Below, in pieces: positions 36,950 through 63,996 of a stretch of DNA of 64,000 nucleotides (position 1 is the first letter of the stretch; each line of letters starts with the position of its first letter). Location: NCBI RefSeq assembly GCF_002159705.1, contig NZ_NFJD01000002.1, forward strand, positions 248,001-312,000, written 5' to 3'. The position numbers were made by a program, and so were the translations under genes. The notes beneath the pieces were generated by a model. The model was not told the DNA's origin, did no database searches, and worked only from the letters and a program-made list of their open reading frames with translations. Source of the DNA: Elusimicrobium sp. An273 (GTDB taxonomy: Bacteria > Elusimicrobiota > Elusimicrobia > Elusimicrobiales > Elusimicrobiaceae).

Positions 36950-36953
36950 ACGT

Positions 36954-38297: not shown

Positions 38298-38342
38298 CTT
38301 TAACTTATACTATATTTCTTTTTTTAAGTTCTATAAAAATTT

Positions 38343-39743: not shown

Positions 39744-39745
39744 TT

Positions 39746-41008: not shown

Positions 41009-41014
41009 ACTATT

Positions 41015-41043: not shown

Positions 41044-41051
41044 GAGTCTTT

Positions 41052-41097
41052 AGGCCTATTGTTTCCCTCCAAAAAGGCCTATTTACCTCTAGGCCCT
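41052..41097. repeat. Three phased AGGCCTAT-type repeats upstream of paralogue 3
   Basis: AGGCCTAT at 41052 and 41075 and AGGCCCT at 41091. Relative to the predicted start they lie at about -44, -67 and -83, positions usual for activator sites. The same set with the same spacing lies before paralogue 1. Confidence 0.7.
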
Positions 41098-41145
41098 CGG
41101 CGGGGCAAAAAGCGCGTCGGACGTTCTTGTAAGGTTTCTTTTTAA

Positions 41146-41178
41146 GCGGCGCTCCGCCGCCCGGATAATCCCGGGCGG
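41146..41178 (-). other. Two mutually exclusive GC hairpins after paralogue 2
   Basis: GCGGCG/CGCCGC (41146-41160) and CCGCCCGG/CCGGGCGG (41157-41178) share four bases, so only one can form at a time. They lie 30-60 nt past the paralogue 2 stop codon on the minus strand. No T run follows, so termination is uncertain. Confidence 0.5.
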
Positions 41179-41209
41179 GAAAAGCGACATTTGGTAACAA
41201 GCAGGAGGA

Positions 41210-42544: not shown

Positions 42545-42649
42545 TTCTGCATTTACCATTTTAAAATCCGTTTTTAGCCCGATCCATTTGGAGTTTTTCC
42601 CCCGTCTTTGGGCCCAGCCAAACGCTGGCCCGGCGGGCGAAATTCCGCC

Positions 42650-44044: not shown

Positions 44045-44050
44045 ATTATT

Positions 44051-44079
44051 ACTATACCGCTTTCGGCCTTCCAAGAACA
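44051..44079 (-). promoter_or_regulatory. Leaderless promoter of paralogue 1
   Basis: TGTTCT, 17-nt spacer, TATAGT, then AATAAT and the ATG. The region up to 44132 is homologous to that upstream of paralogue 3. Confidence 0.65.
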
Positions 44080-44087
44080 GAGTCATT

Positions 44088-45463: not shown

Positions 45464-45894
45464 TTCTCGCTCTCCCAGCGCACCACCAGCGGCGCAGGTT
45501 GGGAAGGTTCTTCTTTGCCGTCCTTCCAACCCAAAAGATTTTTGGCGGTAAATACCGCAAAGGAAGCGGAATAATTGCCGCGCAGGCTGTTTTGAATTAA
45601 GATATTGCCCTGCAAATCGCGCGCTTTGGCGGCGGCTTGGCGAAAGGCGGGATGTTTTTCTTCCCATTCTTTCAGCACGCGGCACGTCGTGCCAAGCATT
45701 TTGGCAAAGGCGGCAAAAGTGGGCAATTCGGCGGCGGTTTCCACGAGGGAAATGCTTCCGTCGCGTTTGGCTACTTCCGTTACGGTAAAAGGCGCAACGT
45801 CAAAAAACCGCAGCAGACGCTCGCAAAATTCAGGTTGGTATTTTAACGGTTTTTCCCGCGTTTTTAACGTGCGGGCACGGGTTTTGGCAGGCAT
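45460..45894 (-). CDS. Terminase small subunit
   Basis: 144 residues. A basic N-terminus (MPAKTRARTLKTREK) and a helix-turn-helix-like region (LPTFAAFAKMLGTTCRVLKE-W) followed by helices fit DNA-binding small terminases that recognise the packaging start. It overlaps terL by 4 nt. AAGGAG precedes the ATG at 45894; the longer frame has no ribosome site. A consensus promoter lies 150 nt upstream. Confidence 0.85.
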   Translation of the reverse strand: MPAKTRARTLKTREKPLKYQPEFCERLLRFFDVAPFTVTEVAKRDGSISLVETAAELPTFAAFAKMLGTTCRVLKEWEEKHPAFRQAAAKARDLQGNILIQNSLRGNYSASFAVFTAKNLLGWKDGKEEPSQPAPLVVRWESEK

Positions 45895-49703: not shown

Positions 49704-51401
49704 TTAATCTGCCAGTATTTTTAAATTGCGTTTGGCTATTTTATTTTTGGGATCTGCTTTTAGCGCCTGCCGGTAATAATTTTGGGCGGCTGCATCATCC
49801 CCCGCTACGACGGCCGCCGTCCCTAGTCCAAGCCATGCCAGCGCGTCCTGCGGCGCTTGTTTCCCGGCTTGCTCAAACGCGTCCGCCGCCAGCGCGGCGT
49901 CTCCGCGCGCCAGCGCCGCTACACCCTGCAGCAACCGGCACAATCCGTCTGCCGGGCACTGCGGCGCATAATCGGCCAGTTCTTCTTCTGCGTCGTCCAC
50001 AAACGCAAGCCATGTGCGTCCCATGACCCAAAGCCCCATATCATTGCCTACGATGCGCGGGTCATACACGGCTTTTGGGGCCGTGGTATTATCCTGCGTC
50101 AGAGCGGAAGGGGAAGCGTAGTCCGGCGTGCGGCCCTGCAAAGATAAATTAATGTTATACCCCTCGCCCGCTTGGGCCAGCGTCTGCTCCAAGCCCGCTA
50201 CAAACTGTTCAATCTGCTCGGCGCGCTCTTGCGAAGATCCCGCCGGAAGCGAAAAAATGCGTTTAAACGTGCGCGAGGCCGAAGCCCCCGCCAAATTGCC
50301 GTCCGCCCGCAGGCGCTGGTAGGCCTGCTCAAATGTGTTGCCGCGGCGGGAATCGGAAGCGTTTTGGGGAGAAGAAACGGGGTTATATTCCAAAGACACT
50401 TCTATATTGACCGTTTTGGACGGAGATACTTTTTCCAAGCTGTTTTGAAACTGGCGTATTTCTTCGCGAAAAGCCTCCGCCCCGCGGCCGCTGGCGCGGT
50501 AGACGGCATTCAGCGCTAATCCGTCCGCCTTAAAACGCGTAATGGAAAACGCCTCCTCCAGCACCTCCCGTGCCTTGTCCGCCTCGCCTTGGCGCATGAG
50601 TAAAGAAGCATAGCGCAGGCGGGCCACATAGTCCCCCGGTTTGGTGCGTACGGCCTTTTTATAGTATTTTAAAGCGTCCTGCGGGCGGTTTAATTTTTCG
50701 TATAAAGCCCCCAAGCTCAGCTGGGCGTCTTCGTAATAGGGAAATAATTTAAGCGCTTTTTTAAACGATTTTTCGGCTTGTTCATCCCGCCCCAAGGCCT
50801 CGTAAAGCGTGCCCAGCTGATAGTGGTACAGCGGCTCGCGCGGGGAGAGTTCTGCGGCGCGGCGGAAATGTTCCAGCGCTTTATCCAAATTTAACTGCAC
50901 CGCGTAGGTGGAACCCAAATTCATATGCGTGTCGGCCTTGTTGGGATCGAGCGCGTTGGCCTTTAAAAAGTATTCCTGCGCCTGGGGCACGTCTCCCTTC
51001 CAGCCGCTGGCAATCCCCAGCAATTGGTAAGCCATGGCATTGGAAGGATCCAAACGAAGCGCTTCTTGGTATTCACTTTCGGCCGAGTCCACCTGCCCCA
51101 TCCAGTAAAGCGACGCGCCCAGCAGCAAGTAAGGAAGCGGGTCTTTGGAATTTTTGATCACGGCTTTGGCAAAACTGTTAGACGCGTCTTTATAGCGGGC
51201 TTGCGCCATTTCCCCCATGCCGCGGCGCATATCGGTAACGGACTGCTCCAGCATAATTCTGTCCCACACGGTTTGGGAATAGTCGGTCTTTAGCTCCTGC
51301 TTGCGAAAGGAAAACGGGAAAAAGGCCCCCGCACCAGGCGGGTGCGCCCCAAAAAGCATTTCCATTCCTACCAGCAGGGCCAACGTGCGTTTCCAGTTCA
51401 T
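49704..51401 (-). CDS. Secreted or membrane-anchored TPR protein
   Basis: 565 residues. An N-terminal signal or anchor (MNWKRTLALLVGMEMLFG) is followed by about eight TPRs between residues 70 and 330 (for example PYLLLGASLYWMGQVDSAES, LSLGALYEKLNRPQDALKYY), a middle Ser/Asn-rich region without repeats, and two more TPRs at the C-terminus (PQDALAWLGLGTAAVVAGDD). It is a likely scaffold for an envelope complex. I chose the ATG at 51401, where the signal begins; TATCAT ends 6 nt upstream and there is no ribosome site, so initiation is probably leaderless. It is co-transcribed with rsmA. Confidence 0.82.
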   Translation of the reverse strand: MNWKRTLALLVGMEMLFGAHPPGAGAFFPFSFRKQELKTDYSQTVWDRIMLEQSVTDMRRGMGEMAQARYKDASNSFAKAVIKNSKDPLPYLLLGASLYWMGQVDSAESEYQEALRLDPSNAMAYQLLGIASGWKGDVPQAQEYFLKANALDPNKADTHMNLGSTYAVQLNLDKALEHFRRAAELSPREPLYHYQLGTLYEALGRDEQAEKSFKKALKLFPYYEDAQLSLGALYEKLNRPQDALKYYKKAVRTKPGDYVARLRYASLLMRQGEADKAREVLEEAFSITRFKADGLALNAVYRASGRGAEAFREEIRQFQNSLEKVSPSKTVNIEVSLEYNPVSSPQNASDSRRGNTFEQAYQRLRADGNLAGASASRTFKRIFSLPAGSSQERAEQIEQFVAGLEQTLAQAGEGYNINLSLQGRTPDYASPSALTQDNTTAPKAVYDPRIVGNDMGLWVMGRTWLAFVDDAEEELADYAPQCPADGLCRLLQGVAALARGDAALAADAFEQAGKQAPQDALAWLGLGTAAVVAGDDAAAQNYYRQALKADPKNKIAKRNLKILAD

Positions 51402-51446
51402 ATGTATATGATAAATAAAAACAGACGGCCGGGGCAAACAGGGCAT

Positions 51447-51487: not shown

Positions 51488-54400
51488 CTATTCTATCGTA
51501 ACTGATTCAGTCACTGTTTCACCGGCTACTTGTCCGCCAGGCGTTCCGGTGGCAGAAGACCGCTTATACTGGCCTCCGCACGCCGAGAAATTTCCATTGC
51601 TCGGTTTGGCGTTTTTGCCGTTTACGCATACCGCGCCAACATACTGCAGCGCTTCCGCCACCGGCATATTGCCTTCTAAGCCGCACGAGGTATCCGAATC
51701 GTTAAAGATACGGGAATACGCCCGAACGTAGTTTTGACGGTTGATATCGTCAATCGTGGCGTTGGTGCTGAAATCTGCCAGCTCTTTATCCGTGGCAGAT
51801 ATCTGCTGCTCAAAGCCTACCGCATCCGCAATGGCATGCAGCGGATACGTAGACGGGTTAAACCCGTTTTTGGCCCAACCGCCCTCCGTAATTTGCTTTA
51901 AGTAAGAATCACGGCCCGTGCTGCCCGCATAGGTGGAATACCGGGCGCGATCGCCGACTCTTTTATGGTTCCAGTTATAGCGTCCGTAGTGATAAGGGAC
52001 TACCTCCTTCTTAGCATATACGGTCGTTCCCTTGACTTCTTGGGCAGAACCGCAACCTAAGAAACGGCGGTCTACAATCTTTTTCCCGTCGGCATCAACC
52101 GCAAACAAAGCCGGGAAGTACGAGGAGTTCGGCCCCGTATAGGCGGCAAACGCACCAAACGTATTTCTCCAAACTTCTTTTTCTTGGATCATCTGCGGAT
52201 CATACGAGTTGTAGCCAATCGTCTTACCCAGCGCGCAGACCACGTTCAGCGGTACCTGCGCCTGCGGATTGCGGGAATACGCAATCGTCATGGCGTCTAC
52301 CAACTGAGGCACGGTGACGGTTCCGCTATGGACGAATTTCGTTTTGGCATCGGTAAACTCTTGGCTGGCGTTTACTTCCGCGATGACACTGTCCACATAT
52401 TTCTTGACTTCTTCCTGGTTCATCATCTTGGCGGAACCTTGGCCGGATTTGCGCGTGCTGCCTACTGCCGTACAATTATCGGTAGACAAGGCACTTTTAT
52501 AGGAACGTTCGCCTCCTCTGGCAAAAACGCTCATCGTCGGGAATTGAAGCAAGGCTACACGTTCCTTGGCAAAGCGGAACGAAATGCCAAAATCGCCGTT
52601 CATTTTATCGGCCAATTCCAAGGTAATCGTGCCTTCCGGTTCCGGATCCGGTTCCGGATCCGGTTCCGGGTCATCGGCCGGCGGATCTTCTGGGTCTTCC
52701 TCTATGTCCGTTTCAAAACCAATCGGCTCCGAATTGTCGCTGTAGTAGCAAGTGGCCGTGCTGACGATATTACCCGGTTTATCTGCGCCTAACGCAGCGC
52801 CCGGCTTGCCGTCTGCAGTCAACGCCCGGATATTGCCGTTTTGGCAGCCGCCTTTGGTAATAGAACTGCCATCCGTAGTAAGCGAATCGCACTGGCGCAC
52901 TTCCCACGTGATGACGACACGCCCGCCGGCATTGCGCAATGCCGCAATTTCAGAAGACGTAGCTACCACTTGGTAGTCATCCCCCGCACCCGGCAGCTTG
53001 GCGCGTTCTTTGCCCAAGCTCTGGGTTACAAAACCCGCATTGGTGATATTTTCACTCCACGCGCCTTGAAACGGCCGGACATCTTGGTGCGGAATATAGA
53101 ACCACTGGCCGCCATCGGACGTTTTGGTAGACGTTGTAATCGCCGCGGGCTGGGTGTTATTTTCCCCTTGGATCGTATACGAGAGCAGGAAACGGCTCTT
53201 CATCGCGTTATACGCCTGGGCACCCATCATCCCGTTCGTAAACGTCAAATGCGCATACGGAAAGCTCTGCTGCGTTTCTCCTTTGTTATTGGAGATATTC
53301 GCCAAGTAATCGCAGCTGATGCGCACCAGCGGGAACGGACAACGCGCTCCCGTTACCCAATCTTTGCCTTCTTTGGCTTTTTTGGTGGAAATACCCAGAT
53401 TTTGCTTCGTTCCCACTTTTACCGCATCCCGGATGATGCCGCCTTCTCTAAGCGTATCCATGAACGCTTTGTAAGTGGGCAGAGAACCGCCGTCCACCAA
53501 AGCTACCATTTTTTTAGCTTTGTCGACATCCGTTGCCTGTTCGTTGATGGCGTTTAAACAGTCCTGCTGCACAGGCCACTTCATGGCGCGGCACTTGGCA
53601 ATGGCTTCATCATACGTTTTGGCTTTAAAAGCCCCCGCCTTGCCTTCTTTATTTAAGCCCCAATAGCCGCTGTAATTGTAGCCCTCAGGCGATTTTTCCT
53701 GCAACTCGGTCTTTTTGATTTTTTTATTTTTAATGGCAACGCTTTCCACAAACATCGGAACAAAATTGCTGCGTTGCGTAATCGCCGTGATGTTACTGTT
53801 AAATTCGGGGCCTTTACCGATATATCCCACCACCAAAGCAGCTTCCTGTTCATCCGGCGGCAGGTTGTAGTACGCGTTTAATTGCGCCGTCGGAACACCC
53901 ACCACATAGTGGTACACGCTCCAACCGTCTTTGGTGCTGGAGAAGTCGGCATAATAGACGCCGTCTTTGGAAAAGGTATTGCAGTCGCCCGCTTCCGGGA
54001 AAGTGCCCACATTTTTGCCGGCAACTCTGTTCCACCAAGCCATCAATCTGGCACCCAAGCCGTTGCTCAAGCAATCCATACGCTGGGCAATGGGGCCCAT
54101 GGAAACTTCATTAGAGGTGCTCCCTTCCCACGGGTCTTGAACATCTTTCTCAATGCCATAGCGGAAATGGGCTCGGCAATTGTCTTTATCAAAAGGAATC
54201 GTCGGATAAGATCTGTTCCATTCCTTTTCAGTCAATCCGGCACATTCGGCTTCAGATCCTGCACCGGCCTTTGCGCCCAAAAATTTACCCATAGACCAGT
54301 CGTCCGTCCCCGTGATAATACAAGAGAGGAAACCGTCCAAGAATTTCTGCGCTAAGCCGACGCCGAATTTAATCCAATCCCATTTGTGGTTGAACCGCGC

Positions 54401-55363
54401 TTCCCATTCCATCTGGGAGCGGCGTTTCATCATATCCCACCACCAGGGTTCTTTGCCGTTAAAAGCAAACCGGCGTTCCAAATTGCCGTTTCCGCCGCCG
54501 GGGCCAAAAGAACCGCCCGAAAGCCCGCCAATTTTGCCGGGTTCAATCGGTCTCATTTGGGCGTCCATCAAGGCCTGCATGGCGTTGGCTTTAGACATGG
54601 CGTCTTTCGAACGTCTGGCTTCCGCCGCCGCGCCTTGCCCAAAATAACTGCGGCTCGGTTTACCCGCCGCCTGCAACGGCTGCAGAGAAACCGGTTTGGG
54701 ACTGTTGCGCGGGCCTTCGGCCGCTACACGCTGTGCGGCCGTTTTTAAACCGCCGCCCCACATGCCGACACCCAGCTTAGACCCGCTGCGGCTGGTCAGC
54801 CCAGCATTAGAAAGCGGGTTGATCTTCGTCGTCGCACGGCGGAAAGCCGCACGCGTAGCGGGGGCTGCGGTGTTTCTGTAAATGTTGGTATTATTTTCTT
54901 CCACAGAGGTTCCGGTATAGGAAGAATCATCCAAACCGCTGCGGTCAATATCGTACAGACTGGAATCATCCGCCGGTTCCTCATCCGAGCCAAATCCTTT
55001 AATCAAGCTCAGGGGGTCGCGGCCGGCAAGTTGCGCAATCTGTCCTTCCGGATCCCCGGTAACCGTATCAAAACCATACCGTTCGGGATCGAATATAGAT
55101 TCCTCGCTTCCGGGAGTAATCATCGGTTCTTCATTTACTTGCCCGCTGTATTTATACAGGAACGGCAGCAACAACAATGCTACCAAGGCCGCAATAAAGA
55201 ACGGGGCATCCCTTTTGGTTCTCTCAAAGAGAGTCTTTTTGGGTTTGCCATCGCTCCCAATTTTGGAGGAAATACGATTAGCAAAAGATTTAAAAGCAGC
55301 GGGTTTGCTGTTTTTAATCTTATCGCTAAAGGTAAAACTATCCTTCTTTTTTTCCTCTGGCAT
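51488..55363 (-). CDS. Very large single-anchor envelope protein of unknown function
   Basis: 1291 residues. A basic cytoplasmic tail of about 50 residues precedes one membrane helix (APFFIAALVALLLLPFLY), then a long outside part. Residues 80-300 are low-complexity Ser/Gly/Ala, 300-880 hold a globular region with many Cys (SCIITGTDDW, DNCRAHFRYG, RCPFPLVRISCDYL), a Glu-Pro-Asp-Pro linker lies near 900, and a second globular Cys-containing part closes the protein. No known domain is recognised. The shared topology with the five genes upstream suggests one envelope complex. AGGAGG is 5 nt before the ATG and the gene has its own promoter and structured leader. Confidence 0.75.
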   Translation of the reverse strand: MPEEKKKDSFTFSDKIKNSKPAAFKSFANRISSKIGSDGKPKKTLFERTKRDAPFFIAALVALLLLPFLYKYSGQVNEEPMITPGSEESIFDPERYGFDTVTGDPEGQIAQLAGRDPLSLIKGFGSDEEPADDSSLYDIDRSGLDDSSYTGTSVEENNTNIYRNTAAPATRAAFRRATTKINPLSNAGLTSRSGSKLGVGMWGGGLKTAAQRVAAEGPRNSPKPVSLQPLQAAGKPSRSYFGQGAAAEARRSKDAMSKANAMQALMDAQMRPIEPGKIGGLSGGSFGPGGGNGNLERRFAFNGKEPWWWDMMKRRSQMEWEARFNHKWDWIKFGVGLAQKFLDGFLSCIITGTDDWSMGKFLGAKAGAGSEAECAGLTEKEWNRSYPTIPFDKDNCRAHFRYGIEKDVQDPWEGSTSNEVSMGPIAQRMDCLSNGLGARLMAWWNRVAGKNVGTFPEAGDCNTFSKDGVYYADFSSTKDGWSVYHYVVGVPTAQLNAYYNLPPDEQEAALVVGYIGKGPEFNSNITAITQRSNFVPMFVESVAIKNKKIKKTELQEKSPEGYNYSGYWGLNKEGKAGAFKAKTYDEAIAKCRAMKWPVQQDCLNAINEQATDVDKAKKMVALVDGGSLPTYKAFMDTLREGGIIRDAVKVGTKQNLGISTKKAKEGKDWVTGARCPFPLVRISCDYLANISNNKGETQQSFPYAHLTFTNGMMGAQAYNAMKSRFLLSYTIQGENNTQPAAITTSTKTSDGGQWFYIPHQDVRPFQGAWSENITNAGFVTQSLGKERAKLPGAGDDYQVVATSSEIAALRNAGGRVVITWEVRQCDSLTTDGSSITKGGCQNGNIRALTADGKPGAALGADKPGNIVSTATCYYSDNSEPIGFETDIEEDPEDPPADDPEPDPEPDPEPEGTITLELADKMNGDFGISFRFAKERVALLQFPTMSVFARGGERSYKSALSTDNCTAVGSTRKSGQGSAKMMNQEEVKKYVDSVIAEVNASQEFTDAKTKFVHSGTVTVPQLVDAMTIAYSRNPQAQVPLNVVCALGKTIGYNSYDPQMIQEKEVWRNTFGAFAAYTGPNSSYFPALFAVDADGKKIVDRRFLGCGSAQEVKGTTVYAKKEVVPYHYGRYNWNHKRVGDRARYSTYAGSTGRDSYLKQITEGGWAKNGFNPSTYPLHAIADAVGFEQQISATDKELADFSTNATIDDINRQNYVRAYSRIFNDSDTSCGLEGNMPVAEALQYVGAVCVNGKNAKPSNGNFSACGGQYKRSSATGTPGGQVAGETVTESVTIE
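52635..52670. repeat. 12-bp tandem repeat encoding the Glu-Pro-Asp-Pro linker
   Basis: Three copies of the unit TCCGGTTCCGGA lie in frame inside the 1291-residue gene and encode alternating EPDP residues (about residues 898-910). Confidence 0.8.
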
Positions 55364-55537
55364 AAATGCCTCCTATCAAAATAAAACTGCCGGTTCGGCT
55401 TTTTTCAAAGCCTTGGAAAGAATTTCTCCGTCGGAGATTCTTCCACGTACTGCATTTTTCTATAATAAAGAAATGCGTTGTTCAGAGATGGTCCCCCACT
55501 CCGTAACAACTTTCTTTATACACACTTCCTTACTTCT
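55364..55537 (-). promoter_or_regulatory. Structured 5' leader of the 1291-residue gene (candidate regulatory RNA)
   Basis: The predicted 165-nt leader can form in order: a long hairpin at 55477-55510 (GTTGTT...AACAAC outer, GGAG/CTCT and TGG/CCA inner, GGGA loop), a hairpin at 55421-55443 (CTCC/GGAG with AGAAT/ATTCT), GGCTTT-GAAA-AAAGCC, and GCCG-AAC-CGGC just before AGGAGG. I match no known riboswitch. Confidence 0.5.
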
Positions 55538-55565
55538 ATTATACAATTAAATCCATTTTTTTCAA
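55538..55565 (-). promoter_or_regulatory. Promoter of the 1291-residue gene
   Basis: TTGAAA, 16-nt spacer, TATAAT on the minus strand, starting 6 nt after the stop codon of the upstream gene. Confidence 0.7.
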
Positions 55566-55570
55566 GGGGT

Positions 55571-57094
55571 TTAATACATATTCATGCTTCCCCAATCCGT
55601 CTCCGGGAAGAAATCCCCCGCATTGGGGTCTACCGGTTCTCCGTTTACCCCTACGTTAAACGTGCCTTTTACCAAATTTGCCACGCCGCTTTCCGAGCAA
55701 CCGCCGTTATAGCAGTCGCCTTCTTCATAATCGGCCGCGGCCTTAATTTCGCCTAAGCAGGCTTTTTGCTCGTCCGGGGTTTCCAAAGCGGCGCATTTTT
55801 CTTGTTCTTCTGCACAATAGGACGCGTATTGATCGTACCGGCCCTGCAAATTATTGGTCGTACAAGTGCCCTCTCTGCCCGATTTTACGGCTACGCCGCA
55901 AAAAGTGCTTAAGTCCGAATAGGCCAGTTTAATTTGTTCGCATTGATTGCGCAACACGGAAAGACGGTTGGAAAAATCCCCGTTTACGTCTTCGCACGTT
56001 TTCGGAAAGGCGGCGGCCAGCGCATTAATTCCGGCTTTTGCCGCCTGCAACTGGTTCGTGAGCGTCTCCCCGGAGGAACTCATGGCCCGCTCGCATTCTT
56101 TCTCGTTTTCCAAGCGCAATTTAATCGTATCCACATCGGCCACCACGTCATCGGGATTAATACCGATGCCCGAAAATCCGGAAGAATCAAACACCTTTTT
56201 AGGCATATCCGCCCCGTCAAAACCGGCGCTCGCTAAGGTTTTTTTGAGCACCACATTGGGCGTACGGCGGGCACTCATGCCCGTCAGCCAGGCATAATAC
56301 ATATCCCGCTGGGCTTTATGATTGCCGATTTCCGTAATAGGATTTAACTGCGAAAGCGTCCCCCCCGTTTCCAGCGATTTGGCCAGATTTTGAAGGCCCG
56401 CGTCGGAACGAGTGGCTTTATCCACCAAGCGCCCTAGCCAATCGTTCTGGCTGGCGCCCGCAATATGAGGGTTGGCAATTTTTTTAAGCGAGTTTACCGA
56501 ATTAAATCCATCTTTGGGATCACGGGCTAAGGTGGAAGCATCCGCCCCGAAAAAGACTTCCCCCGGGGCCGTTTGATTTGCTTGGGTGTTGGCCGAGTCC
56601 CCCGTAATGCGGGCAGCAGGAGATTTGTTATCATCTCCGGAAAAGGAACCCGCAATCAAATCCCGCGCTTTGCCCTGATTGGCAAGGGCCACATTGACCG
56701 CCCGCAAATTGATTAAATTGGAGTCTTTCTGCGCCGTCATCCGTTCATGCGCGGTCGCAAATCCTCCGTCGTTTCCAAACACGCCGGCGGCCGTCGGATC
56801 GGGCAGTTCCCCGCGGGCTATTTTGGCATGTTCATTCCAAGACAAAAGCGCCTTTAAAAAAGACATCTCCTGCGTTTCTTCCGGGGTGTATCCCATGGCC
56901 CAAGCCAAATTGCGCAGAAACGGAATTTTGCTAACGGGTACCAACCCCGTCAGCAAAAGAAGAAAAAAGAACAAAATAAACACCGCCCACGCTTTTTTAG
57001 AGCGGGCAAGACGTTTTAGCTCCCCCCACAAAACCGCCAAGGAGCTTTGTTTGACAGTGTTTTCCGTCTGTGTTTGTTTATTTTGTTCTTTCAT
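55571..57094 (-). CDS. Single-anchor envelope protein with Cys-rich C-terminus
   Basis: 507 residues. A cytoplasmic tail with basic KRLARSKKA precedes one membrane helix (WAVFILFFFLLLLTGLVPV). The outer part is mostly polar, and residues 370-480 hold about twelve Cys (KTCEDVNGDF, NQCEQIK, TFCGVAVKSG, DCYNGGCSES). No known domain is recognised. It follows the 503-residue paralogue gene by 54 nt, which hold a 12-bp hairpin. The start lacks a clear ribosome site. I infer a structural member of the same envelope assembly. Confidence 0.72.
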   Translation of the reverse strand: MKEQNKQTQTENTVKQSSLAVLWGELKRLARSKKAWAVFILFFFLLLLTGLVPVSKIPFLRNLAWAMGYTPEETQEMSFLKALLSWNEHAKIARGELPDPTAAGVFGNDGGFATAHERMTAQKDSNLINLRAVNVALANQGKARDLIAGSFSGDDNKSPAARITGDSANTQANQTAPGEVFFGADASTLARDPKDGFNSVNSLKKIANPHIAGASQNDWLGRLVDKATRSDAGLQNLAKSLETGGTLSQLNPITEIGNHKAQRDMYYAWLTGMSARRTPNVVLKKTLASAGFDGADMPKKVFDSSGFSGIGINPDDVVADVDTIKLRLENEKECERAMSSSGETLTNQLQAAKAGINALAAAFPKTCEDVNGDFSNRLSVLRNQCEQIKLAYSDLSTFCGVAVKSGREGTCTTNNLQGRYDQYASYCAEEQEKCAALETPDEQKACLGEIKAAADYEEGDCYNGGCSESGVANLVKGTFNVGVNGEPVDPNAGDFFPETDWGSMNMY

Positions 57095-57106
57095 CTTTTG
57101 ATACGT

Positions 57107-57138
57107 ACGGAAGGAACGCCTTTCAGCGTTCCTTCCGT
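57107..57138 (-). other. 12-bp hairpin between two envelope genes
   Basis: ACGGAAGGAACG / CGTTCCTTCCGT with an 8-nt loop, 12 nt before the start codon at 57094. No T run follows on the minus strand. The arm near the start holds no ribosome site, while the distal arm contains AAGGAA; it may set processing or relative expression. Confidence 0.65.
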
Positions 57139-57148
57139 TAGATTTTCA

Positions 57149-58660
57149 TTAAGCCTGTTGGTTAGAATCCGCATTTGCTTTGGCATCACTTTCCATGCCT
57201 TTCTGAACCAAAGCAGAACCGCCTTGTGTTAATCCCATCATACCAACTGTTTTGACGGCTCCCATTGCTTTTGCCATAAATTTAGCATTAGCCGCAGCAG
57301 AGCCAGTTTCTTTGACAGCTGAAATTCCAGCATAAAGCAAGGCAACAATAGCTCCCATGGATAATCCATATCCCATTAGTGGCATAAACCATCCCTTATA
57401 GTGCCGTTGATAATCTGCCGCAAAGCCGAACACCACTGCCGCATAAGCCATTGCAATGCCCAAGACAATCCAGCCATAAGCCATCATGGAAATTCCCAAG
57501 AAGCCCGCTTTTTTCCCTTGTGCAATCAAGTGATATCCAAGCGGAATAGCAACAACCGTAACGGCCACCAATGCCAGTGCCATCCACATCAAACGTTTAC
57601 GAGCTTTATCCTGTTTTTCCGCTTCTTCATCCACTGTGGGTATATAGTCACCGATGCCCTTCAGTTTTTGCTGCGTAGGGTTTTCAAAATCAGCCGAACC
57701 GCCAGATTCTGAAGCATTGGGAAGATCATCTATCTGCATACCGCCCGAGTTTTTATAACTGGCAAACCACGCCCGGGAGGCTTCGTTTGCCGCACGGTTG
57801 CGGTTGGAAGCCACATCGGCAGAACGTTTGCTAATATCTTTCAGTTCATTTTTTTCCTTAAACGATCTGCGCGATCTGGAAACGGAAGAATCTCTTCCGC
57901 CCGCCGTAAAAGAGCTGGAACGGCGCGCATTGGTCAAAGAGGAAACCGCATTGCTGCCGCTGGGCATTGCACCGGAAAATTGATACCCTTCCGAAGGCCC
58001 GCCCGCTCCTCTCCCGCCGGATGCCACACCAGAAGAGCTTCTCGCCGCAGAAGACCCGGAACCGGAAGAAGAAGCCACCGGGCCGGAGGTAGCATTAAAA
58101 GCGTTTCCAGACGCCCGAGCCATAGAGGCAGACGCCAAGGTAGGCCCGGCACCCTCTCCCGAACCGGCTCCCATAGCGGCGGCCGCAACGGCCCCCGCCG
58201 GCACCTGGGAGGAAGAACCCGCCGGCGCATTCCGCACGGAAGAGCCCACTTCCATCGCTTTATTGGCGCCCATGCCTAAGCCGTCAGTCGCTGAGGTTTC
58301 CGCCGCAGGCCCGAACGATACATTTTTAATGTTGTCTACCGCATCTAACCCAAAGTTATCCGCCGAACCGGAACCGGCTTCTATAGCGGCACGTTCTTCC
58401 GCGGTAGCCACTTGGTTTAACGAATCTTTGATGTTAATAGAGGTAAGCAGCCCGTTCTTTTGGCGGCGCAGGCCTTCCTGCGCGGAAGAACTGCTAATGG
58501 CCGACACCGAACGCAGGGCACGTTCTTTGTTGGCGACTGTATTATCCGCCTCATAGGCGCCGTAAACGGCTAAGACACCCACCCCGGCAATAGCCGTCAG
58601 CTGGGGGATACCCATCACCAGTTTACCGGATATGCTTTTTAAAAATTTAAACACATTCAT
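57149..58660 (-). CDS. Envelope protein, paralogue B (C-terminal multi-helix membrane domain)
   Basis: 503 residues. An N-terminal membrane helix (MGIPQLTAIAGVGVLAVYGA) is followed by a Ser/Gly/Ala-rich low-complexity part with DGLGMGANKA and then SADVASNRNRAANEASRAW near residue 300. The C-terminal 150 residues have four membrane helices (LMWMALALVAVTVVAIPLGY and later). The gene at 58966-60531 has the same order of parts and the same motifs, so they are paralogues. The function is unknown. GGGAG 8 nt upstream supports the ATG at 58660 rather than 58666. Confidence 0.75.
   Translation of the reverse strand: MNVFKFLKSISGKLVMGIPQLTAIAGVGVLAVYGAYEADNTVANKERALRSVSAISSSSAQEGLRRQKNGLLTSINIKDSLNQVATAEERAAIEAGSGSADNFGLDAVDNIKNVSFGPAAETSATDGLGMGANKAMEVGSSVRNAPAGSSSQVPAGAVAAAAMGAGSGEGAGPTLASASMARASGNAFNATSGPVASSSGSGSSAARSSSGVASGGRGAGGPSEGYQFSGAMPSGSNAVSSLTNARRSSSFTAGGRDSSVSRSRRSFKEKNELKDISKRSADVASNRNRAANEASRAWFASYKNSGGMQIDDLPNASESGGSADFENPTQQKLKGIGDYIPTVDEEAEKQDKARKRLMWMALALVAVTVVAIPLGYHLIAQGKKAGFLGISMMAYGWIVLGIAMAYAAVVFGFAADYQRHYKGWFMPLMGYGLSMGAIVALLYAGISAVKETGSAAANAKFMAKAMGAVKTVGMMGLTQGGSALVQKGMESDAKANADSNQQA
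57765..57805. repeat. 41-nt perfect direct repeat (copy 1) in the paralogue pair
   Basis: Identical to 59588-59628. It encodes the NRNRAANEASRAW motif in both proteins, although the flanking DNA is much less similar. Confidence 0.85.
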
Positions 58661-58672
58661 ATGCATTTCTCC

Positions 58673-58957
58673 CTACTGTTTCAATGCGTCCACCGCGTTT
58701 TGCACGCCCGATTGCACCGCCTGCTGTTCCATAGAAGCCCGCTGATAAATAGCCCGCCGGCGCAATAATTCTTCCTCTCGTTGCTGTTTCTGTTTCAGTT
58801 CGGCAATTTGCCGTTCCGTTTCTTTTACTTGGGAATAAAAGTAAAAAATACCAATTACCCAAACGAGCAAAACGATTAACACCACCGCCCGCGCAATAAA
58901 AATCATTTTTCGCGAAACCTGAATAGGATGAGTAGATCTTTTTTTATTCTCATTCAT
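58673..58957 (-). CDS. Small membrane-anchored coiled-coil protein
   Basis: 94 residues: basic cytoplasmic tail, one membrane helix (IARAVVLIVLLVWVIGIFYF) and a heptad-rich coiled coil (VKETERQIAELKQKQQREEE). The shape is like FtsB/DivIC or a pilus-assembly link protein, but no signature allows a name. It lies between the two paralogues with AGGAG before the ATG, so it is part of the same assembly. Confidence 0.72.
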   Translation of the reverse strand: MNENKKRSTHPIQVSRKMIFIARAVVLIVLLVWVIGIFYFYSQVKETERQIAELKQKQQREEELLRRRAIYQRASMEQQAVQSGVQNAVDALKQ

Positions 58958-58965
58958 AAAAACTC

Positions 58966-60531
58966 CTATTTGTTCTGCTCATCATTTTGCCCATTCATAT
59001 CCAAGTCCGGGTTTTCCGAATCCAAGGTTGCATCCTTCGTTCCCGAGTTTACCCACCAGGCACCCAACGCACCCAGACCGGCTGCACCACCGCCCAACAA
59101 TAACTGGGCCCAAGTTGCCCACTTGACGGCAAATCCGACTCCGGGAATAAACGCGGCGCCAATGCCGGCCGTTAATATTGATCCAATGGTTATACCCCAT
59201 GTGGATAAGGAAGAACCACTGTATTCTTTGGCGTATTTGGCACTGGTTATTAACAAAGAAAGCACCGGAATTAAGGCAACCGCCGCAATAGCGGCCGCAA
59301 AAATCCATCCAGCACCAAATATCCATCCTGCGGAAGCAATGGCCGCCGGAATGGCCACCATGGCCGCCAGCGCCGTGGGAATGGCGATCCACATCCACAT
59401 ACGGATATTATCTCTGGCTTTTTTGCGCTCCAAGGCTTTCTGCTCTAATGGGGTGGTTGCATACGTCTGAATCCCTCTTAATTGAGCTTCCGTAGCATCA
59501 TTAAAATCTTTGGATCCCTGCCCCTGCCCGGTGGTTACGCTTTCGCCGCTAATGATGCTCATCCCGCCGGAAACTTTGGTACCGTCCAACCACGCCCGGG
59601 AGGCTTCGTTTGCCGCACGGTTGCGGTTAGCCGCGGCATCGGCAGAGCGTTTGCGGATAAAAGCCAAGTCCGATTTTTCTCTGGAAGAGCGGCCATCCAA
59701 AGCTTTTAAATTTTTATCAGACGCCAGCATTTCATCTTCCCCAAAGCTGGCACGGGCGCGTAAGCGGGCATTTTCCTGTGCAGACGCCACTTGCGATTGA
59801 AAATTTTTCATAATTTGCTCAGGCGTCTGGTTCTGTCCGGCGGCACCAGCCCCTTTGCCGCCATTTTTGGTGCTGTCCTGCACGACAAAAGAGGAATTAA
59901 ACGAGTTACCACCACCACCGCTGCCGCCTTTCGTCGCCGCGGAAGAGCCCCAATCGCGGCTGGCGCTGGCCAACGTTCCGGCCGGGGCCGCTCCTTGCGC
60001 TTGTCCGCCCGCGGCGGCCGCTTGCTGGGCCTGTGCTTGGGCTTGGGCTTGCGCAATGGCATCCGACACGCCGGAGAGCGATTGTTTGGCAAAAGCCATC
60101 GGATTATTTTTTAATTCTTCTTCATTCGCGCGGTTTGCTCCCATACCTAACCCTTCCGTACCGCCCATTTGATACGCTTGCGGATTCGAAGGAGCCAAGG
60201 CCTCGTCCGAAACAGAGTCCTCATATTCTTCGGCCCGTTTTTGGGCAAGAGCAAATTTTTCCGTCATCTCAATGGCTTTGGAGGGCGTCGCCAAAAAGGA
60301 GGACTGCACCTCTCCATTGGCTCCATACGAGCCGCCGGAGGCGCCGGCCACGTAAACCACTTCACCCGGGTTGTACTGCCCGCCCAGATTGAAAGCCGTG
60401 TTATCCGAAGGAGTATCCAAGTATTGCCACGCAGCAATACCCGCCACCCCTACCACGGCTGAAAGGCCCACTGCCTGCGCAGCGGAAAGGGCAATTTTGC
60501 CGCTTTTTCCCAGCCATTTAAAGATATTCAT
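58966..60531 (-). CDS. Envelope protein, paralogue A (C-terminal multi-helix membrane domain)
   Basis: 521 residues. N-terminal membrane helix (AAQAVGLSAVVGVAGIAAWQ), then a low-complexity part with EGLGMGANRA, an AQAQAQAQQAAAAGG stretch and the motif SADAAANRNRAANEASRAW. The C-terminal part has a Lys/Arg cluster (EQKALERKKARDNIR) and about four membrane helices rich in Ala and Gly. It is a paralogue of the 503-residue protein. I chose the ATG at 60531, 6 nt after GGGAGG. Its stop codon is 8 nt before the small coiled-coil gene. Confidence 0.75.
   Translation of the reverse strand: MNIFKWLGKSGKIALSAAQAVGLSAVVGVAGIAAWQYLDTPSDNTAFNLGGQYNPGEVVYVAGASGGSYGANGEVQSSFLATPSKAIEMTEKFALAQKRAEEYEDSVSDEALAPSNPQAYQMGGTEGLGMGANRANEEELKNNPMAFAKQSLSGVSDAIAQAQAQAQAQQAAAAGGQAQGAAPAGTLASASRDWGSSAATKGGSGGGGNSFNSSFVVQDSTKNGGKGAGAAGQNQTPEQIMKNFQSQVASAQENARLRARASFGEDEMLASDKNLKALDGRSSREKSDLAFIRKRSADAAANRNRAANEASRAWLDGTKVSGGMSIISGESVTTGQGQGSKDFNDATEAQLRGIQTYATTPLEQKALERKKARDNIRMWMWIAIPTALAAMVAIPAAIASAGWIFGAGWIFAAAIAAVALIPVLSLLITSAKYAKEYSGSSLSTWGITIGSILTAGIGAAFIPGVGFAVKWATWAQLLLGGGAAGLGALGAWWVNSGTKDATLDSENPDLDMNGQNDEQNK
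59588..59628. repeat. 41-nt perfect direct repeat (copy 2) in the paralogue pair
   Basis: Second copy of the repeat at 57765-57805, in the same reading frame of paralogue A. Confidence 0.85.
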
Positions 60532-60556
60532 AAATTCCTCCCGATCTCTCACAAAA

Positions 60557-62200
60557 CTAATTGCGTTTTAACAAAACTTCTTTAACATCCGTCTCCACTG
60601 GCAACTCATTGACATATGTTTCATACTGTGTACGTGTAGTAAAATCACTTGGAGATTTAAATTTTATATCTTGTTTCCCGCCAGTAGTCCCAGTTGAAAA
60701 ATTACTTGTATCAATTTTAGTTCTCCCTGTATGCGCGGTAAACTCAGCATCATATACTTCGTGCCATCCTTTGTTGTAAAAGGTATCAGCCAGGGATCCG
60801 TCACGGTTAGCTTTCAGATCAGATGTAAATTCCTTTCTGATTTGATCTTCCCATTTTTTATCCTGTTTTTTAAGAGCTGCTATTCTCTCTTTTTCCAGCA
60901 ACTCAGCTTGATTGGCATCGACATTGCCCTTGCTGCTGCTTTTTGTTTTCCCGATTTCTACAGTTTCAGATTCCGTACTGGGCCGTTCCGACGGACGTGT
61001 AAATTTTTCGCTTGCAGAGGTATCCGATCCCGCTAAGCCTTTTTTATAATTTGCATAATCATCGCGCAAGGGCCCCTTCACATTCGCCATGTCCGCTTCG
61101 GTTTTTCCTGTTAGTTTTAAATAAACATCTTTTTGATCAGCTGACAATTCCGACCAATCCTTGGATAAGATATCTTCCGCCACCTGATTATTATATCGTC
61201 TTCCAGCAGAATGACCGCTCATCACCCCACCTAAGGCGTCAATTCCTTTTCCCAGCAAATTGCCCATCGTTTGCATACCCAAATTAATCATTCCGCTCCA
61301 CAACTGTTCCAACAGGCGGTCAGCCATATCTTGTGTTAATTCGTCTTTTTCCTCTTTGCCTTGCTGTGCCGCATCGGAAAGGGCATCGTCCAAATTACTT
61401 AAATCGGCCGAAGAAACCGGCGCATTTGTATCCAACGCAAGACCGCCGCTTTTGCTTAAATCCACACCGTTTTCCGTAAAAGCTTCACTGCCTTGCACGT
61501 GGCCGCCCATCAACGCTCTTTTGGCGTTGGCGCCTTTGGAATCGCGCAATCCGGCAGCCGCCCGGCTGGTTTGCGCAAACTGCGACAAAGCCCGGCGGGC
61601 ATCTTGGTTTTTTAATTGTTGAAAAGGCGCTTCGGTTCCTTTTTCCTGGCTCTTATACGGAGAGAAGTCCCCCCGCGGGGCACCCCAAGAAGTGTTAACG
61701 CCGCTCCCGCTGGCGTGGCTGACGCTGGCATTATCCAACTGTCCGATTTGGGTCGGCCCGGAGGAAGCCCCCCCGCCGCTATACCCGCCGCCGGAACCGC
61801 CATATCCGCCGGGAACGTAATCCGCCGAGTCCATGCCGCTGGCGGAAACGTCCTCCTCCGCCGCCGCTTCTTCTGCGGCCGCGGCATCTTCTTCTTGGCG
61901 GGCTTCTTTTTCGGCAGCCGAATACAGCATCGTAGAATTGTTGCCTTGCATATCCGGATATTTGGAAGCCAGCAGATATTCTTCCGCCTCGTCATTTAAA
62001 AAGGGCATCTGGGCCAAATCGTACCCGCGGGTGTTAAATCCGTCGAAAGACGATTCATCTGCATCTCCCATAAAAGAAGCCAGCGTAAGCAATGCGACAA
62101 AACAAACGACGATAATGGCCCCCCACGTATACGCCTGCTTACGGTCCATTTTATTAATCTTTTGGAATACATTTCCCGGTTTTAGTTTTAATTTAAACAT
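60557..62200 (-). CDS. Single-anchor low-complexity envelope protein
   Basis: 547 residues. A basic tail (MFKLKLKPGNVFQKINKMDR) precedes one membrane helix (YTWGAIIVVCFVALLTLASF). The outside part has an Ala/Glu run near residue 105, a Gly/Ser/Tyr-rich stretch (GGYGGSGGGYSGGGASSG), and a helical charged C-terminus (AELLEKERIAALKKQDKKWE). No known domain is seen. GAGG is 5 nt before the ATG. It is the first gene after the strong promoter at 62297 and is read together with the genes down to 55571. Confidence 0.75.
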   Translation of the reverse strand: MFKLKLKPGNVFQKINKMDRKQAYTWGAIIVVCFVALLTLASFMGDADESSFDGFNTRGYDLAQMPFLNDEAEEYLLASKYPDMQGNNSTMLYSAAEKEARQEEDAAAAEEAAAEEDVSASGMDSADYVPGGYGGSGGGYSGGGASSGPTQIGQLDNASVSHASGSGVNTSWGAPRGDFSPYKSQEKGTEAPFQQLKNQDARRALSQFAQTSRAAAGLRDSKGANAKRALMGGHVQGSEAFTENGVDLSKSGGLALDTNAPVSSADLSNLDDALSDAAQQGKEEKDELTQDMADRLLEQLWSGMINLGMQTMGNLLGKGIDALGGVMSGHSAGRRYNNQVAEDILSKDWSELSADQKDVYLKLTGKTEADMANVKGPLRDDYANYKKGLAGSDTSASEKFTRPSERPSTESETVEIGKTKSSSKGNVDANQAELLEKERIAALKKQDKKWEDQIRKEFTSDLKANRDGSLADTFYNKGWHEVYDAEFTAHTGRTKIDTSNFSTGTTGGKQDIKFKSPSDFTTRTQYETYVNELPVETDVKEVLLKRN

Positions 62201-62280
62201 AAAAACCTCTTAAATATATAATAAAAACTACTCTTGTTGACCCGTACCCGCCGGATACGCTCAAACACAGAGTTACACAT
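62188..62280 (-). CDS. Possible 30-residue leader ORF overlapping the next gene
   Basis: Begins MCNSVFERIRRVRVNK directly after AGGAG, about 10 nt past the predicted transcription start, and ends 10 nt inside the 547-residue gene in another frame. The ribosome site is too close to the ATG for certainty. It could couple or attenuate translation of the main gene. Confidence 0.3.
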   Translation of the reverse strand: MCNSVFERIRRVRVNKSSFYYIFKRFLCLN

Positions 62281-62296
62281 TCTCCTGCTAATAATT

Positions 62297-62325
62297 AGTA
62301 TAGGCAGAAAATAGCCTATTGTCAA
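62297..62325 (-). promoter_or_regulatory. Promoter with an internal ATAGGC palindrome
   Basis: TTGACA, 17-nt spacer, TATACT on the minus strand. The inverted repeat ATAGGC-N8-GCCTAT at 62300-62319 fills the spacer and touches the -10 box, the right place for a repressor or a spacer-twisting activator. Confidence 0.75.
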
Positions 62326-62338
62326 GGCTAAAAAGCCG

Positions 62339-62884
62339 CTAGCGTCCTTCCGGCCGCTGATACGGGGCAGGGCGTTCATTATGCCCCACATACTTAATAA
62401 TTTCTACCTGTCCGCCCGTTTCACACAAGAAAGCATAGCCTTTAAGGCATTTGCCATCCCGGTCGCAGACTTGGTCTTTGTTATAATTGCACAGGAAACG
62501 AATCCGGGGCGGACGGGTGTGCGCCGTCAGGACGACCTTCGTCCACGTGCCGGACGTTTCAATATCCATTTTTAATTCACTTAAACTCAGAAATTTGCGC
62601 ATTCCCGGGTTATCAAAACCCAAATAATTTTCCACCTTTTTCTGGATATCTTTTTTTAAAAAGCGTCTGTCCCATGTATTGGCATAATAGTCGGTTTCGT
62701 GCGACTGCAGCTGAAACCGGCGCGCCGCATAAAACCCCGCAATTTCCATTTTCTGGCTTAAAATCAGCAGTCCGAAAATTTTAATGATGAACAAAATAAA
62801 AATGACAAACAACGGGAACAGCAACACCACTTCCGTGGTGGCCTGCCCTTTTTTAGAACGGAAAGAAAAAAGACGTTTCATCAT
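62339..62884 (-). CDS. TadE-like pseudopilin
   Basis: 181 residues. The N-terminus KKGQATTEVVLLFPLFVIF is the TadE signature: basic residues, Gly, Glu at 18, then a membrane helix with Pro. The outer part has a Tyr-rich stretch and four Cys (FLCNYNKDQVCDRDGKC, FLCETGG). TadE proteins are processed minor pilins of Flp/Tad pili. The start at 62884 overlaps the stop of the upstream gene (TGATG); the longer frame is its antisense-phase extension. Confidence 0.8.
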   Translation of the reverse strand: MMKRLFSFRSKKGQATTEVVLLFPLFVIFILFIIKIFGLLILSQKMEIAGFYAARRFQLQSHETDYYANTWDRRFLKKDIQKKVENYLGFDNPGMRKFLSLSELKMDIETSGTWTKVVLTAHTRPPRIRFLCNYNKDQVCDRDGKCLKGYAFLCETGGQVEIIKYVGHNERPAPYQRPEGR

Positions 62885-63996
62885 CACGGATCCAATGTTA
62901 CCGTATATTTCGGCAACGGGTCTGGCCACACGCAGTTGTTGCTGTTGCGCGGGCAGGACAACACCACCGTGTTGCGCACATACGGCTTATATTTTTGTTC
63001 CAGATTAATGTTAAAATGGTTCCGCGGCAGTTTAAAAGGCTGTTTAAGCACCACCCCGCGCCCTAAGGTGCGTAACTTGCTGCGCGAACTGGAATCCAAA
63101 TAAGCAAATTGGAACAGCTTGGTTTTAATAATTTCGGACATCGGCAAATCCAAGTTAATGGCACCGCCGTGTTCCCCGCTTAAACCGGAGTCTGATGCAT
63201 AAAAACGCACTTTATCGAGTTCAAACGGCTTGGTAGAAAGCGTGATATACCGGCGCAGCTGCGAAGCGCTTTGCCGGGCGCAGTCTGACTTTTTGCAGTC
63301 GTTCGTATTCAAATAATACGCTTCGCGGAACATGACCGCATTTTTGCTGACTTCTTTATACACATAAGACTGCGACTCGTAAATAGACCCTACCTGCACG
63401 TATGTTTCCAGATAGTTCTGAATGACAACCGTGGCGTAACGAAGCGCCGGGAAATAATAATCGTTGACCAAAGAACGGCTGACTACCGGCACCCACGTAT
63501 TGGAATCCGGTTCCCGGGGATCTTCGCGTTCCCAATCCGTACGCGGAAAATCCTGAATAGCCGGATCATAGCGCACTCCCCAGTCATCCTTTTCAGCAGG
63601 TGGCGGATTATTGATGCCGGTGTCATAGTTGGGAGCAATGGTAGGCACGCCGCCGCCGTGATAGAAAAGCTCAAAAATGCTAATCGGCTGCTTGCCGGCT
63701 TGCGCCGCCGTCTCCTTAGGATTCAACTTTTGGTCTTTGTAATAAAGCATGACGCGGTAGGGAAGCGGCCCGTTGACCATTGCCACGGCGTTTAAATACG
63801 TGCTGGCCGAAGATACTTGGGAGTAAGCCGCATTATCCAGGGCAAACTGCTGGCGCACTTTGGTCATCGAAACTTTGGCCGTTTCAAACAACAAATAAAT
63901 GACCAATATAAAAATAGGCGCCAAAAGCACCGAAGGCAGCAAAATTTGCGCCTTTCGGTCTTGCAGTTTCCATACGGCATGGCGGATAAAATGCAT
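62884..63996 (-). CDS. TadG-like membrane-anchored protein
   Basis: 370 residues. KLQDRKAQILLPSVLLAPIF near the start, followed by an aliphatic helix and ETAKVSMTKVRQQFALDNAAY, resembles the Tad-pilus TadG/TadE type anchor and the helix after it. A Tyr-rich middle and a beta-rich Cys-containing C-terminus (VLSCPRNSNNCVWP) follow. It sits directly before the TadE-like gene with a 1-nt overlap. The ATG at 63996 is 4 nt from the window edge, so the ribosome site cannot be judged and an earlier start is possible. Confidence 0.65.
   Translation of the reverse strand: MHFIRHAVWKLQDRKAQILLPSVLLAPIFILVIYLLFETAKVSMTKVRQQFALDNAAYSQVSSASTYLNAVAMVNGPLPYRVMLYYKDQKLNPKETAAQAGKQPISIFELFYHGGGVPTIAPNYDTGINNPPPAEKDDWGVRYDPAIQDFPRTDWEREDPREPDSNTWVPVVSRSLVNDYYFPALRYATVVIQNYLETYVQVGSIYESQSYVYKEVSKNAVMFREAYYLNTNDCKKSDCARQSASQLRRYITLSTKPFELDKVRFYASDSGLSGEHGGAINLDLPMSEIIKTKLFQFAYLDSSSRSKLRTLGRGVVLKQPFKLPRNHFNINLEQKYKPYVRNTVVLSCPRNSNNCVWPDPLPKYTVTLDP

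What the first reader, a model, noticed from the sequence alone, without database searches (positions are those of the whole stretch)
51488..63996. Undescribed Tad-like envelope assembly built from TadG/TadE-like proteins plus six large single-anchor proteins
Eight adjacent minus-strand genes share one topology: short basic cytoplasmic tail, one membrane helix near the N-terminus and a long, low-complexity or Cys-rich outside part. Two begin like Tad pseudopilins. No ATPase, secretin or prepilin peptidase is in view, but the locus runs off the window. The six others match no family I know.
Basis: partly seen in the sequence, partly recalled or inferred. Interest (0 to 1): 0.65.

Follow-up and report, generated by a model that had tools for sequence, protein, structure and literature searches.

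The report
Six-protein envelope module beside Tad pilus
Next to the genes for a known kind of bacterial hair (a Tad pilus), these little-studied gut bacteria and their wider class carry a conserved set of large membrane-anchored proteins that match no known family, probably extra parts of the pilus machine that reach out across the cell envelope.

Summary
The eight genes are real. Six have the single N-terminal anchor described; B and D also carry about three C-terminal helices, and C is small. The missing machinery lies just past the window edge on the same strand: PorV-like protein, two Flp-like pilins, TadE, RcpC, short secretin, TadZ-TadA fusion, TadB, TadC. So the TadG/TadE pair closes a lineage-typical tad locus. 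The six other proteins (A-F) match no Pfam or NCBIfam family. They are not a local oddity: collinear A-B-D-E-F clusters occur in families f1, f2, f7 and f8 of the class, with B/D-E-F in f12. They sit closely behind TadG/TadE in f1, f7 and f8, elsewhere in f2, and are dispersed but kept in a genome of Elusimicrobium minutum's size. E keeps five invariant cysteines in 12 of 12 sequences; F keeps its N-terminal region while its distal part changes cassette-like between species. Best reading: a class-wide accessory module of the Tad apparatus, an inner-membrane scaffold plus a variable outward-reaching protein. The Tad link rests on gene position, not on experiment. An independent, undescribed envelope machine is not excluded.

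The parts
62884..63996 (-). TadG-like pseudopilin, 370 aa, one N-terminal helix
   Evidence: ORF; helix 18-36; PF07811 E 0.22 (below cut-off); same place in 15 of 17 relatives read
62339..62884 (-). TadE-like pseudopilin, 181 aa, class III-type leader KKGQATTEV
   Evidence: PF07811 E 0.0015, 19.1 of 22.9 bits; helix 19-37
60557..62200 (-). Protein A, 547 aa: basic cytoplasmic tail, one helix (27-45), conserved post-helix motif DLA.MPF..DEAE..LL, then low-complexity region
   Evidence: alignment A5; in 75 of 294 phylum genomes
58966..60531 (-). Protein B, 521 aa from ATG: N-terminal helix, Ser/Gly/Ala-rich middle with KRSADxAxNxNRxANE-type motif, C-terminal multi-helix block
   Evidence: paralogue of D (E 4.9e-48)
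58673..58957 (-). Protein C, 94 aa, one helix plus coiled-coil-like tail; weak GspM/FliL-like matches far below cut-offs
57149..58666 (-). Protein D, 505 aa, paralogue of B with the same topology
   Evidence: B/D profile in 68 of 294 phylum genomes, three of them marginal
55571..57094 (-). Protein E, 507 aa: one helix (37-55), Cys-rich helical distal domain (10 Cys)
   Evidence: model pLDDT about 80 over 330-450, mean 60.9; five Cys columns invariant in 12 of 12 sequences across the class
51488..55363 (-). Protein F, 1291 aa: conserved 51-residue cytoplasmic tail, one helix (52-70), conserved region to about 310, then variable Cys-rich distal part (18 Cys)
   Evidence: in 72 of 294 phylum genomes with the genus-built profile
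49704..51446 (-). TPR protein (580 aa) that follows F in most relatives; probable module member
   Evidence: Pfam TPR; F-TPR-KsgA order; E-TPR-KsgA in G128; F-TPR-KsgA in g15

Best explanation
A-F (probably with the TPR protein) are a conserved accessory module of the Elusimicrobia-class Tad pilus apparatus. Shown: the proteins have an N-terminal helix, with conserved N-terminal tails in E and F; homologous, collinear clusters exist across the class; they lie closely behind TadG/TadE in three families; the E core has invariant cysteines; the distal part of F diverges cassette-like while its N-terminal region is kept. Inferred: the short tails of E and F dock on the cytoplasmic face, near the TadB/TadC/TadZ-A platform. 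B and D, with their C-terminal helix blocks, form the inner-membrane base. The long Ala/Gly/Ser-rich stretches act as flexible periplasmic struts. E and the Cys-rich distal part of F are folded with help from the locus's own DsbA/thioredoxin-like protein and sit at or beyond the outer membrane, beside the short secretin. There F makes the species-specific contact (adhesion or recognition), while the scaffold couples it to pilus extension or retraction.
For: Complete tad machinery next door (Flp-like ORFs). TadE-A adjacency in 16 of 18 genomes and 26 of 27 named loci; the block again within two ORFs of TadE in family f7 (G207) and of TadG-TadE in f8 (G276). One-to-one profile matches between f2 clusters and this genus: B 8.9e-10, D 8.5e-8, E 2.4e-8, F 2.5e-11, A 4.6e-6, with the other pairings against A-F, f2A, TadG, TadE and CpaB 8.7e-4 or weaker; the head gene kA1 matches the post-TadE protein of f2 tad loci at 7.7e-9. 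F cassette signal: G011-G004 KsgA 77%, F-N 80%, F-C 82%; G011-G015 KsgA 83%, F-N 74%, F-C 19%. dN/dS between G000 and G024 is 0.00-0.07 for the genes PorV to TadE and 0.07-0.26 for A-F. Thioredoxin/DsbA-like gene in the locus, matches just below cut-off.
Against: No experiment and no known-fold match: Foldseek none at E <= 0.001 for E or F. Tad is nearly universal here (TadZA in 97 of 101 relatives), so co-occurrence cannot prove dependence. In f2 the cluster is away from tad beside dnaX-recR-comEC; in G030, G004 and G128 it is unlinked. Three f2 genomes with E (G060, G090, G093) gave no TadZA at the strict 1e-60 threshold. Four g12 tad loci (G113, G132, G169, G267) have none of A-F behind TadE in the DNA read. 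Low complexity may inflate the weak A-D, A-B/D and A-F matches.
Confidence: 0.5

Rival explanations
1. A-F form an envelope machine of their own (a trans-envelope channel or contact device) that only shares a neighbourhood with tad; B/D are its membrane base, E and F its outward arm.
For: Collinear cluster away from tad throughout the f2 loci read and in G004, G030, G261 and G239; dispersed yet kept in G128.
Against: No ATPase or outer-membrane channel was seen by eye with the cluster in the loci read; repeated placement closely behind TadG/TadE in f1, f7 and f8.
Confidence: 0.25
2. A-F are surface cargo: anchored adhesins or effectors displayed or handed out by the Tad machine, not structural parts.
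For: Fast divergence and cassette-like change of the F distal part; Cys-rich distal domains.
Against: E keeps five cysteines and E/F keep parts of their N-terminal tails over the class; B and D are polytopic, odd for cargo; a fixed gene order suggests a complex.
Confidence: 0.15
3. An ordinary tad locus followed by unrelated fast-evolving membrane proteins kept together by operon inertia.
For: Weak or absent similarity among A, C, E and F.
Against: Same order A-B-D-E-F in other families at different genome positions; set kept while dispersed in G128.
Confidence: 0.05

Closest known systems
Tad (Flp, T4c) pilus system
   Same: TadA, TadB, TadC, TadZ-like domain, RcpC, secretin, Flp-like pilins and TadE/TadG-like pseudopilins in one strand-consistent locus
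   Different: TadZ fused to TadA; secretin only 248 aa with just the secretin domain found; PorV-like protein, thioredoxin-like protein and two-component genes inside; prepilin peptidase unlinked; six extra anchored proteins
RcpC alignment complex of the P. aeruginosa Tad pilus (PMC12307814, passages seen)
   Same: Inner-membrane-anchored protein with a periplasmic part; an RcpC homologue is present (65.3 bits)
   Different: A-F are separate, mostly much larger, and the f2 A-F proteins show no significant match to CpaB (hhalign)
Kil apparatus of Myxococcus xanthus (PMC8460266, passages seen)
   Same: Tad-like core, short secretin (described there as lacking N0), many associated genes of unknown function
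   Different: KilF ATPase carries an FHA domain; here the ATPase carries a ParA/MinD-type domain; no evidence here for killing
T4P/T2SS inner-membrane assembly proteins (PilNOP, GspCLM)
   Same: Bitopic, N-in topology (recalled); C has weak GspM/FliL-like matches
   Different: All matches far below curated cut-offs

Membership tests
Tad pilus system | TadA-type extension ATPase | tested here: met
   T2SSE PF00437 208 bits in L005 12395-14722
[quoted passage not shown]
   T2SSF 62.3 and 58.4 bits, over the 25.2 cut-off
Tad pilus system | TadZ-like ParA/MinD protein | tested here: met
   CbiA domain 34.2 bits at residues 15-232 of the ATPase protein, i.e. as a fusion
Tad pilus system | RcpC/CpaB | tested here: met
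   PF16976 65.3 bits
Tad pilus system | Secretin RcpA with periplasmic N-domain | tested here: inconclusive
   Secretin domain 143.5 bits at 87-248 of 248; no N-domain family listed at E <= 0.01
Tad pilus system | Flp major pilin | tested here: inconclusive
   PF04964 14.5 bits, cut-off 32.2; two small ORFs with GQTAVEY/GQNTIEY-type leaders in the expected place in most loci
Tad pilus system | TadE/TadF/TadG pseudopilins | tested here: met
   Upstream TadE 42.2 bits over the 22.9 cut-off; window pair below the cut-off
Tad pilus system | Prepilin peptidase | tested here: met
   Peptidase_A24 78.2 bits on another contig, C4:78056; unlinked
Tad pilus system (membership of A-F) | A-F needed for, or part of, the pilus machine | not testable with these tools
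   Only gene position and co-retention available
TrbL/VirB6 polytopic conjugation proteins (for B/D) | Profile match over cut-off | tested here: not met
   1 of 25 B/D sequences at E 0.01
Kil apparatus | FHA-domain ATPase | tested here: not met
   No FHA family listed for the ATPase protein at E <= 0.01
GspM/PilO-type proteins (for C) | Profile match over cut-off | tested here: not met
   GspM 19.7 of 60 bits

The most novel reading that the evidence does not exclude
A-F are the core of an undescribed, class-wide trans-envelope contact apparatus of Elusimicrobia. It is older than its present gene neighbourhoods, with a polytopic B/D base and a giant, cassette-variable anchored protein F as its outer arm, and it borrows the Tad motor or works beside it.
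Probability: 0.27. Interest if true: 0.85.

Novelty: new variant of a known kind. Interest (0 to 1): 0.62.

Why it matters
Tad pili are widespread surface machines whose core is thought to be largely known. A bacterial class seems to have built a five- or six-protein inner-membrane module onto it, with a secretin reduced to little more than its barrel domain. That offers a natural test of which Tad parts can be replaced. The variable giant protein F is a clear candidate for what these gut and groundwater bacteria touch.

Tried and rejected
Single-protein search with E found it only in the genus (34 of 61). That suggested a genus-only invention, which profile searches later overturned.

The idea that the post-TadE protein of f2 tad loci (f2A) is protein A itself was rejected: no f1 genome hit, hhalign not significant. 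It instead matches kA1, the head gene of the f2 cluster.

The idea that F belongs to the type IV pilus cluster in G128 was rejected: they are separated by minus-strand lpt-type genes.

Fold searches gave no usable family. The E model's best hits are generic helical bundles. In F only an Ig-like stretch (model 373-575, F about 678-880) reached Z 5-6, which the tool calls common; absence of other folds proves nothing. PDB sequence search: none for F, one chance-level hit for E.

Weak A-D, A-B/D and A-F similarity is reported as suggestive only, because of low complexity.

Full report
What was claimed and what is there. The window is bases 248001-312000 of contig C2 of a 1.50 Mb, 14-contig genome. 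The eight minus-strand genes at 51488-63996 exist. I call them TadG, TadE, A (547 aa), B (521 aa from its ATG), C (94 aa), D (505 aa), E (507 aa) and F (1291 aa); a TPR protein and KsgA follow. A hydropathy scan finds one N-terminal helix in TadG, TadE, A, C, E and F, but one N-terminal plus three C-terminal helices in B and D. So the 'one topology' claim holds for six of eight.

The DNA beyond the window. L005 (C2:310000-328396) carries, all on the same strand: a PorV-like protein; two small Flp-like ORFs; TadE (42.2 bits); RcpC (65.3 bits); a 248-aa secretin with only the secretin domain found; a 775-aa protein with an N-terminal ParA/MinD-type domain and a T2SSE ATPase domain (208 bits); TadB and TadC; a TPR protein; a HAMP-type protein; and a thioredoxin/DsbA-like protein (domains; the HAMP, PorV-type and thioredoxin matches are just below cut-off). 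Then come what read by eye as a histidine kinase, a receiver-kinase hybrid and a response regulator (not scanned), and then the window's TadG and TadE. The only prepilin peptidase match is on another contig. This is a tad locus.

Families. Pfam and NCBIfam give nothing above cut-off for A, B, C, D, E or F. None of 8 E sequences matches Pfam at E 0.01, and the 25 B/D sequences give only scattered membrane-protein matches. The F profile matches no PDB sequence, the E profile one at E 0.022.

Conservation in the genus. Of 18 genomes whose locus was read (this one and 17 relatives), 16 have A directly after TadE; the exceptions are G030 and G004, where A-F is intact elsewhere. In G030 tad is at C4:3.6 kb and E at C4:218 kb. 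Among 35 named loci from public genomes (titles include Elusimicrobia bacterium UBA1436 and Candidatus Avelusimicrobium excrementipullorum), D and E are neighbours in 35 of 35 (counting those few with C placed between them), and TadE precedes A in 26 of the 27 whose DNA reaches past A. Some of these named loci are the same assemblies as the G genomes, so the two counts are not independent.

Distribution. In the same draw of 294 phylum genomes: F profile 72, all in family f1; A profile 75, all f1; B/D profile 68, of which three marginal ones are outside f1; E profile 73, of which six are in family f2. Those six led to a separate cluster in f2 genus g5: kA1, kA2, kB, kD, kE, kF, in the order A-B-D-E-F, with the same topologies, beside dnaX-recR-comEC (gene names by eye) and away from tad. 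Profile-profile comparison matches them one to one with this genus: kA2-A 4.6e-6, kB-B/D 8.9e-10, kD-B/D 8.5e-8, kE-E 2.4e-8, kF-F 2.5e-11, kA1 with the f2 post-TadE protein 7.7e-9. The other pairings with A-F, f2A, TadG, TadE or CpaB are 8.7e-4 or weaker; among the f2 proteins themselves kB-kD is 1.6e-28, kA2-kB 3.4e-5 and the rest 8.5e-4 or weaker.

Across the class. A profile of six f2 E proteins with one g16 and one g13 sequence (A7) hits 69 of 294 genomes in 25 of 90 genera, including families f7, f8, f12 and f13 of the same class; many of the f7, f8 and f13 hits are weak (E 1e-5 to 4e-4). I read 14 of these loci. An F-type gene follows E, directly or after one gene, in 14 of 14. In f8 G276 the order is TadG, TadE, two further ORFs (one A-type by topology), B, one more polytopic ORF, D, E, F. 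In f7 G207 it is TadE, two ORFs, an A-type ORF, B, D, one more polytopic ORF, E, F (E-values). In f8 G261 and f7 G239 the cluster is away from tad. In g16 G197 (f1) a similar run follows TadE. So the block recurs closely behind TadG/TadE in three families and stands alone in others.

The case of G128. This single-contig genome of 1,643,562 bases has the size I recall for Elusimicrobium minutum Pei191. Its tad locus ends at TadE with no A-E behind it. A, a B-type gene and a C-sized gene are together near 711.5 kb; E followed by TPR and KsgA is at about 772.7 kb; F is at 646.3 kb. The set is scattered but kept.

Anatomy of E and F. In 12 sequences across the class five cysteine columns of E are invariant (12 of 12), and the N-terminus of F keeps a short basic juxtamembrane motif (R.K....KD before the helix in most non-g1 rows; TLFER.KRD in this genus), followed after the helix in several rows by an RDP.SLI-type motif. 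Within the genus, F residues 1-360 stay at 54-83% mean pairwise identity per 60-residue block and the remainder at 19-46%. The distal part is discordant with its neighbours: G011 and G004 share KsgA 77%, E 57%, F-N 80%, F-middle 71%, F-C 82%, while G011 and G015 share KsgA 83%, E 51%, F-N 74%, F-middle 25%, F-C 19%. This looks like replacement or exchange of the distal part; I did not test recombination formally. Pairwise dN/dS between G000 and G024 is 0.00-0.07 for PorV to TadE, and 0.23, 0.15, 0.19, 0.24, 0.07 and 0.26 for A to F: faster, still below 1. E alone is no faster than TadG.

Structure. The E model (18 sequences) has mean pLDDT 60.9, with a helical Cys-rich part around 80. The F model, residues 306-1291 (15 sequences), has mean 63.9, with 80-93 over much of about residues 915-1255. 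Neither has a Foldseek match at E 0.001. Only an Ig-like stretch of F gave Z 5-6.

How it most likely works. Shown: helices, shared order, conserved tails, conserved cysteines, variable distal F, and position behind TadG/TadE in three families. Inferred: B/D base, strut-like linkers, disulphide folding by the thioredoxin-like protein, and an outward contact role for F coupled to the pilus. In the P. aeruginosa system RcpC binds the N-domain of the secretin RcpA (PMC12307814, passages seen). Here no N-domain was recognised in the short secretin, so a different link between membranes would be useful; that A-F provide it is a guess. The Kil apparatus, also with a short secretin and many unknown associated genes (PMC8460266, passages seen), shows that Tad cores can be reworked into contact devices.

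What is known. Denise et al. report many Tad systems in Elusimicrobia (PMC6668835, passages seen), and a Tad-like region in E. minutum and Endomicrobium is mentioned in PMC8809381 (passages seen). The type IV filament review PMC10191384 (passages seen) lists no such extra parts in its table of essential Tad proteins. My searches (listings only apart from the papers named) showed no paper on A-F; the library holds only open-licence papers, the E. minutum genome paper was looked up by an id I recalled and is not held, and I read none of these papers in full. So 'undescribed' is limited to that.

Limits. Tad is almost universal among these genomes (97 of 101; 21 of 22 further or repeated f1 genomes), so co-occurrence says little. 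G060, G090 and G093 have E but no TadZA at 1e-60; whether tad is missing or only fragmented was not resolved. Most genomes are MAGs. Start codons, helices and gene names read by eye are approximate. Class and genus names come from record titles and recall; the G genomes bear only kinship labels.

Noticed in passing
window 24503-45954: Prophage-like stretch: terminase (44141-45685), head-tail connector (30885-32486) and GP7-type major capsid protein (28799-29776) reach Pfam cut-offs.
   Followed up: partly
window 33109-44086: Eight tandem, look-alike ORFs of 374-484 aa with signal-peptide-like starts lie between the terminase and connector genes; three of the eight were scanned and match ChaN/Tiki-type haem-binding PF04187 just below cut-off. 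An array like this inside phage structural genes is odd.
   Followed up: partly
L005 12395-14722: TadZ-like and TadA domains are fused in one protein; the query matches one ORF over about 12-732 of 775 at 55-59% identity in most f2 genomes, so the fusion looks lineage-wide.
   Followed up: partly
L005 14728-15474: Secretin of only 248 aa; about 239-267 aa in most f2 loci too.
   Followed up: partly
L191 1828-7943: In f8 genome G261 the B/D genes are amplified to four matched copies in a row.
   Followed up: no
L193, L194, L195: In f7 loci F is followed by two very large ORFs (866 aa and more), the first with an apparent signal peptide.
   Followed up: no
L087-L088 (G128): Upstream of the orphan F gene, beyond minus-strand lpt-type genes, lie type IV pilus-like genes with six small pilin-like ORFs.
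   Followed up: no
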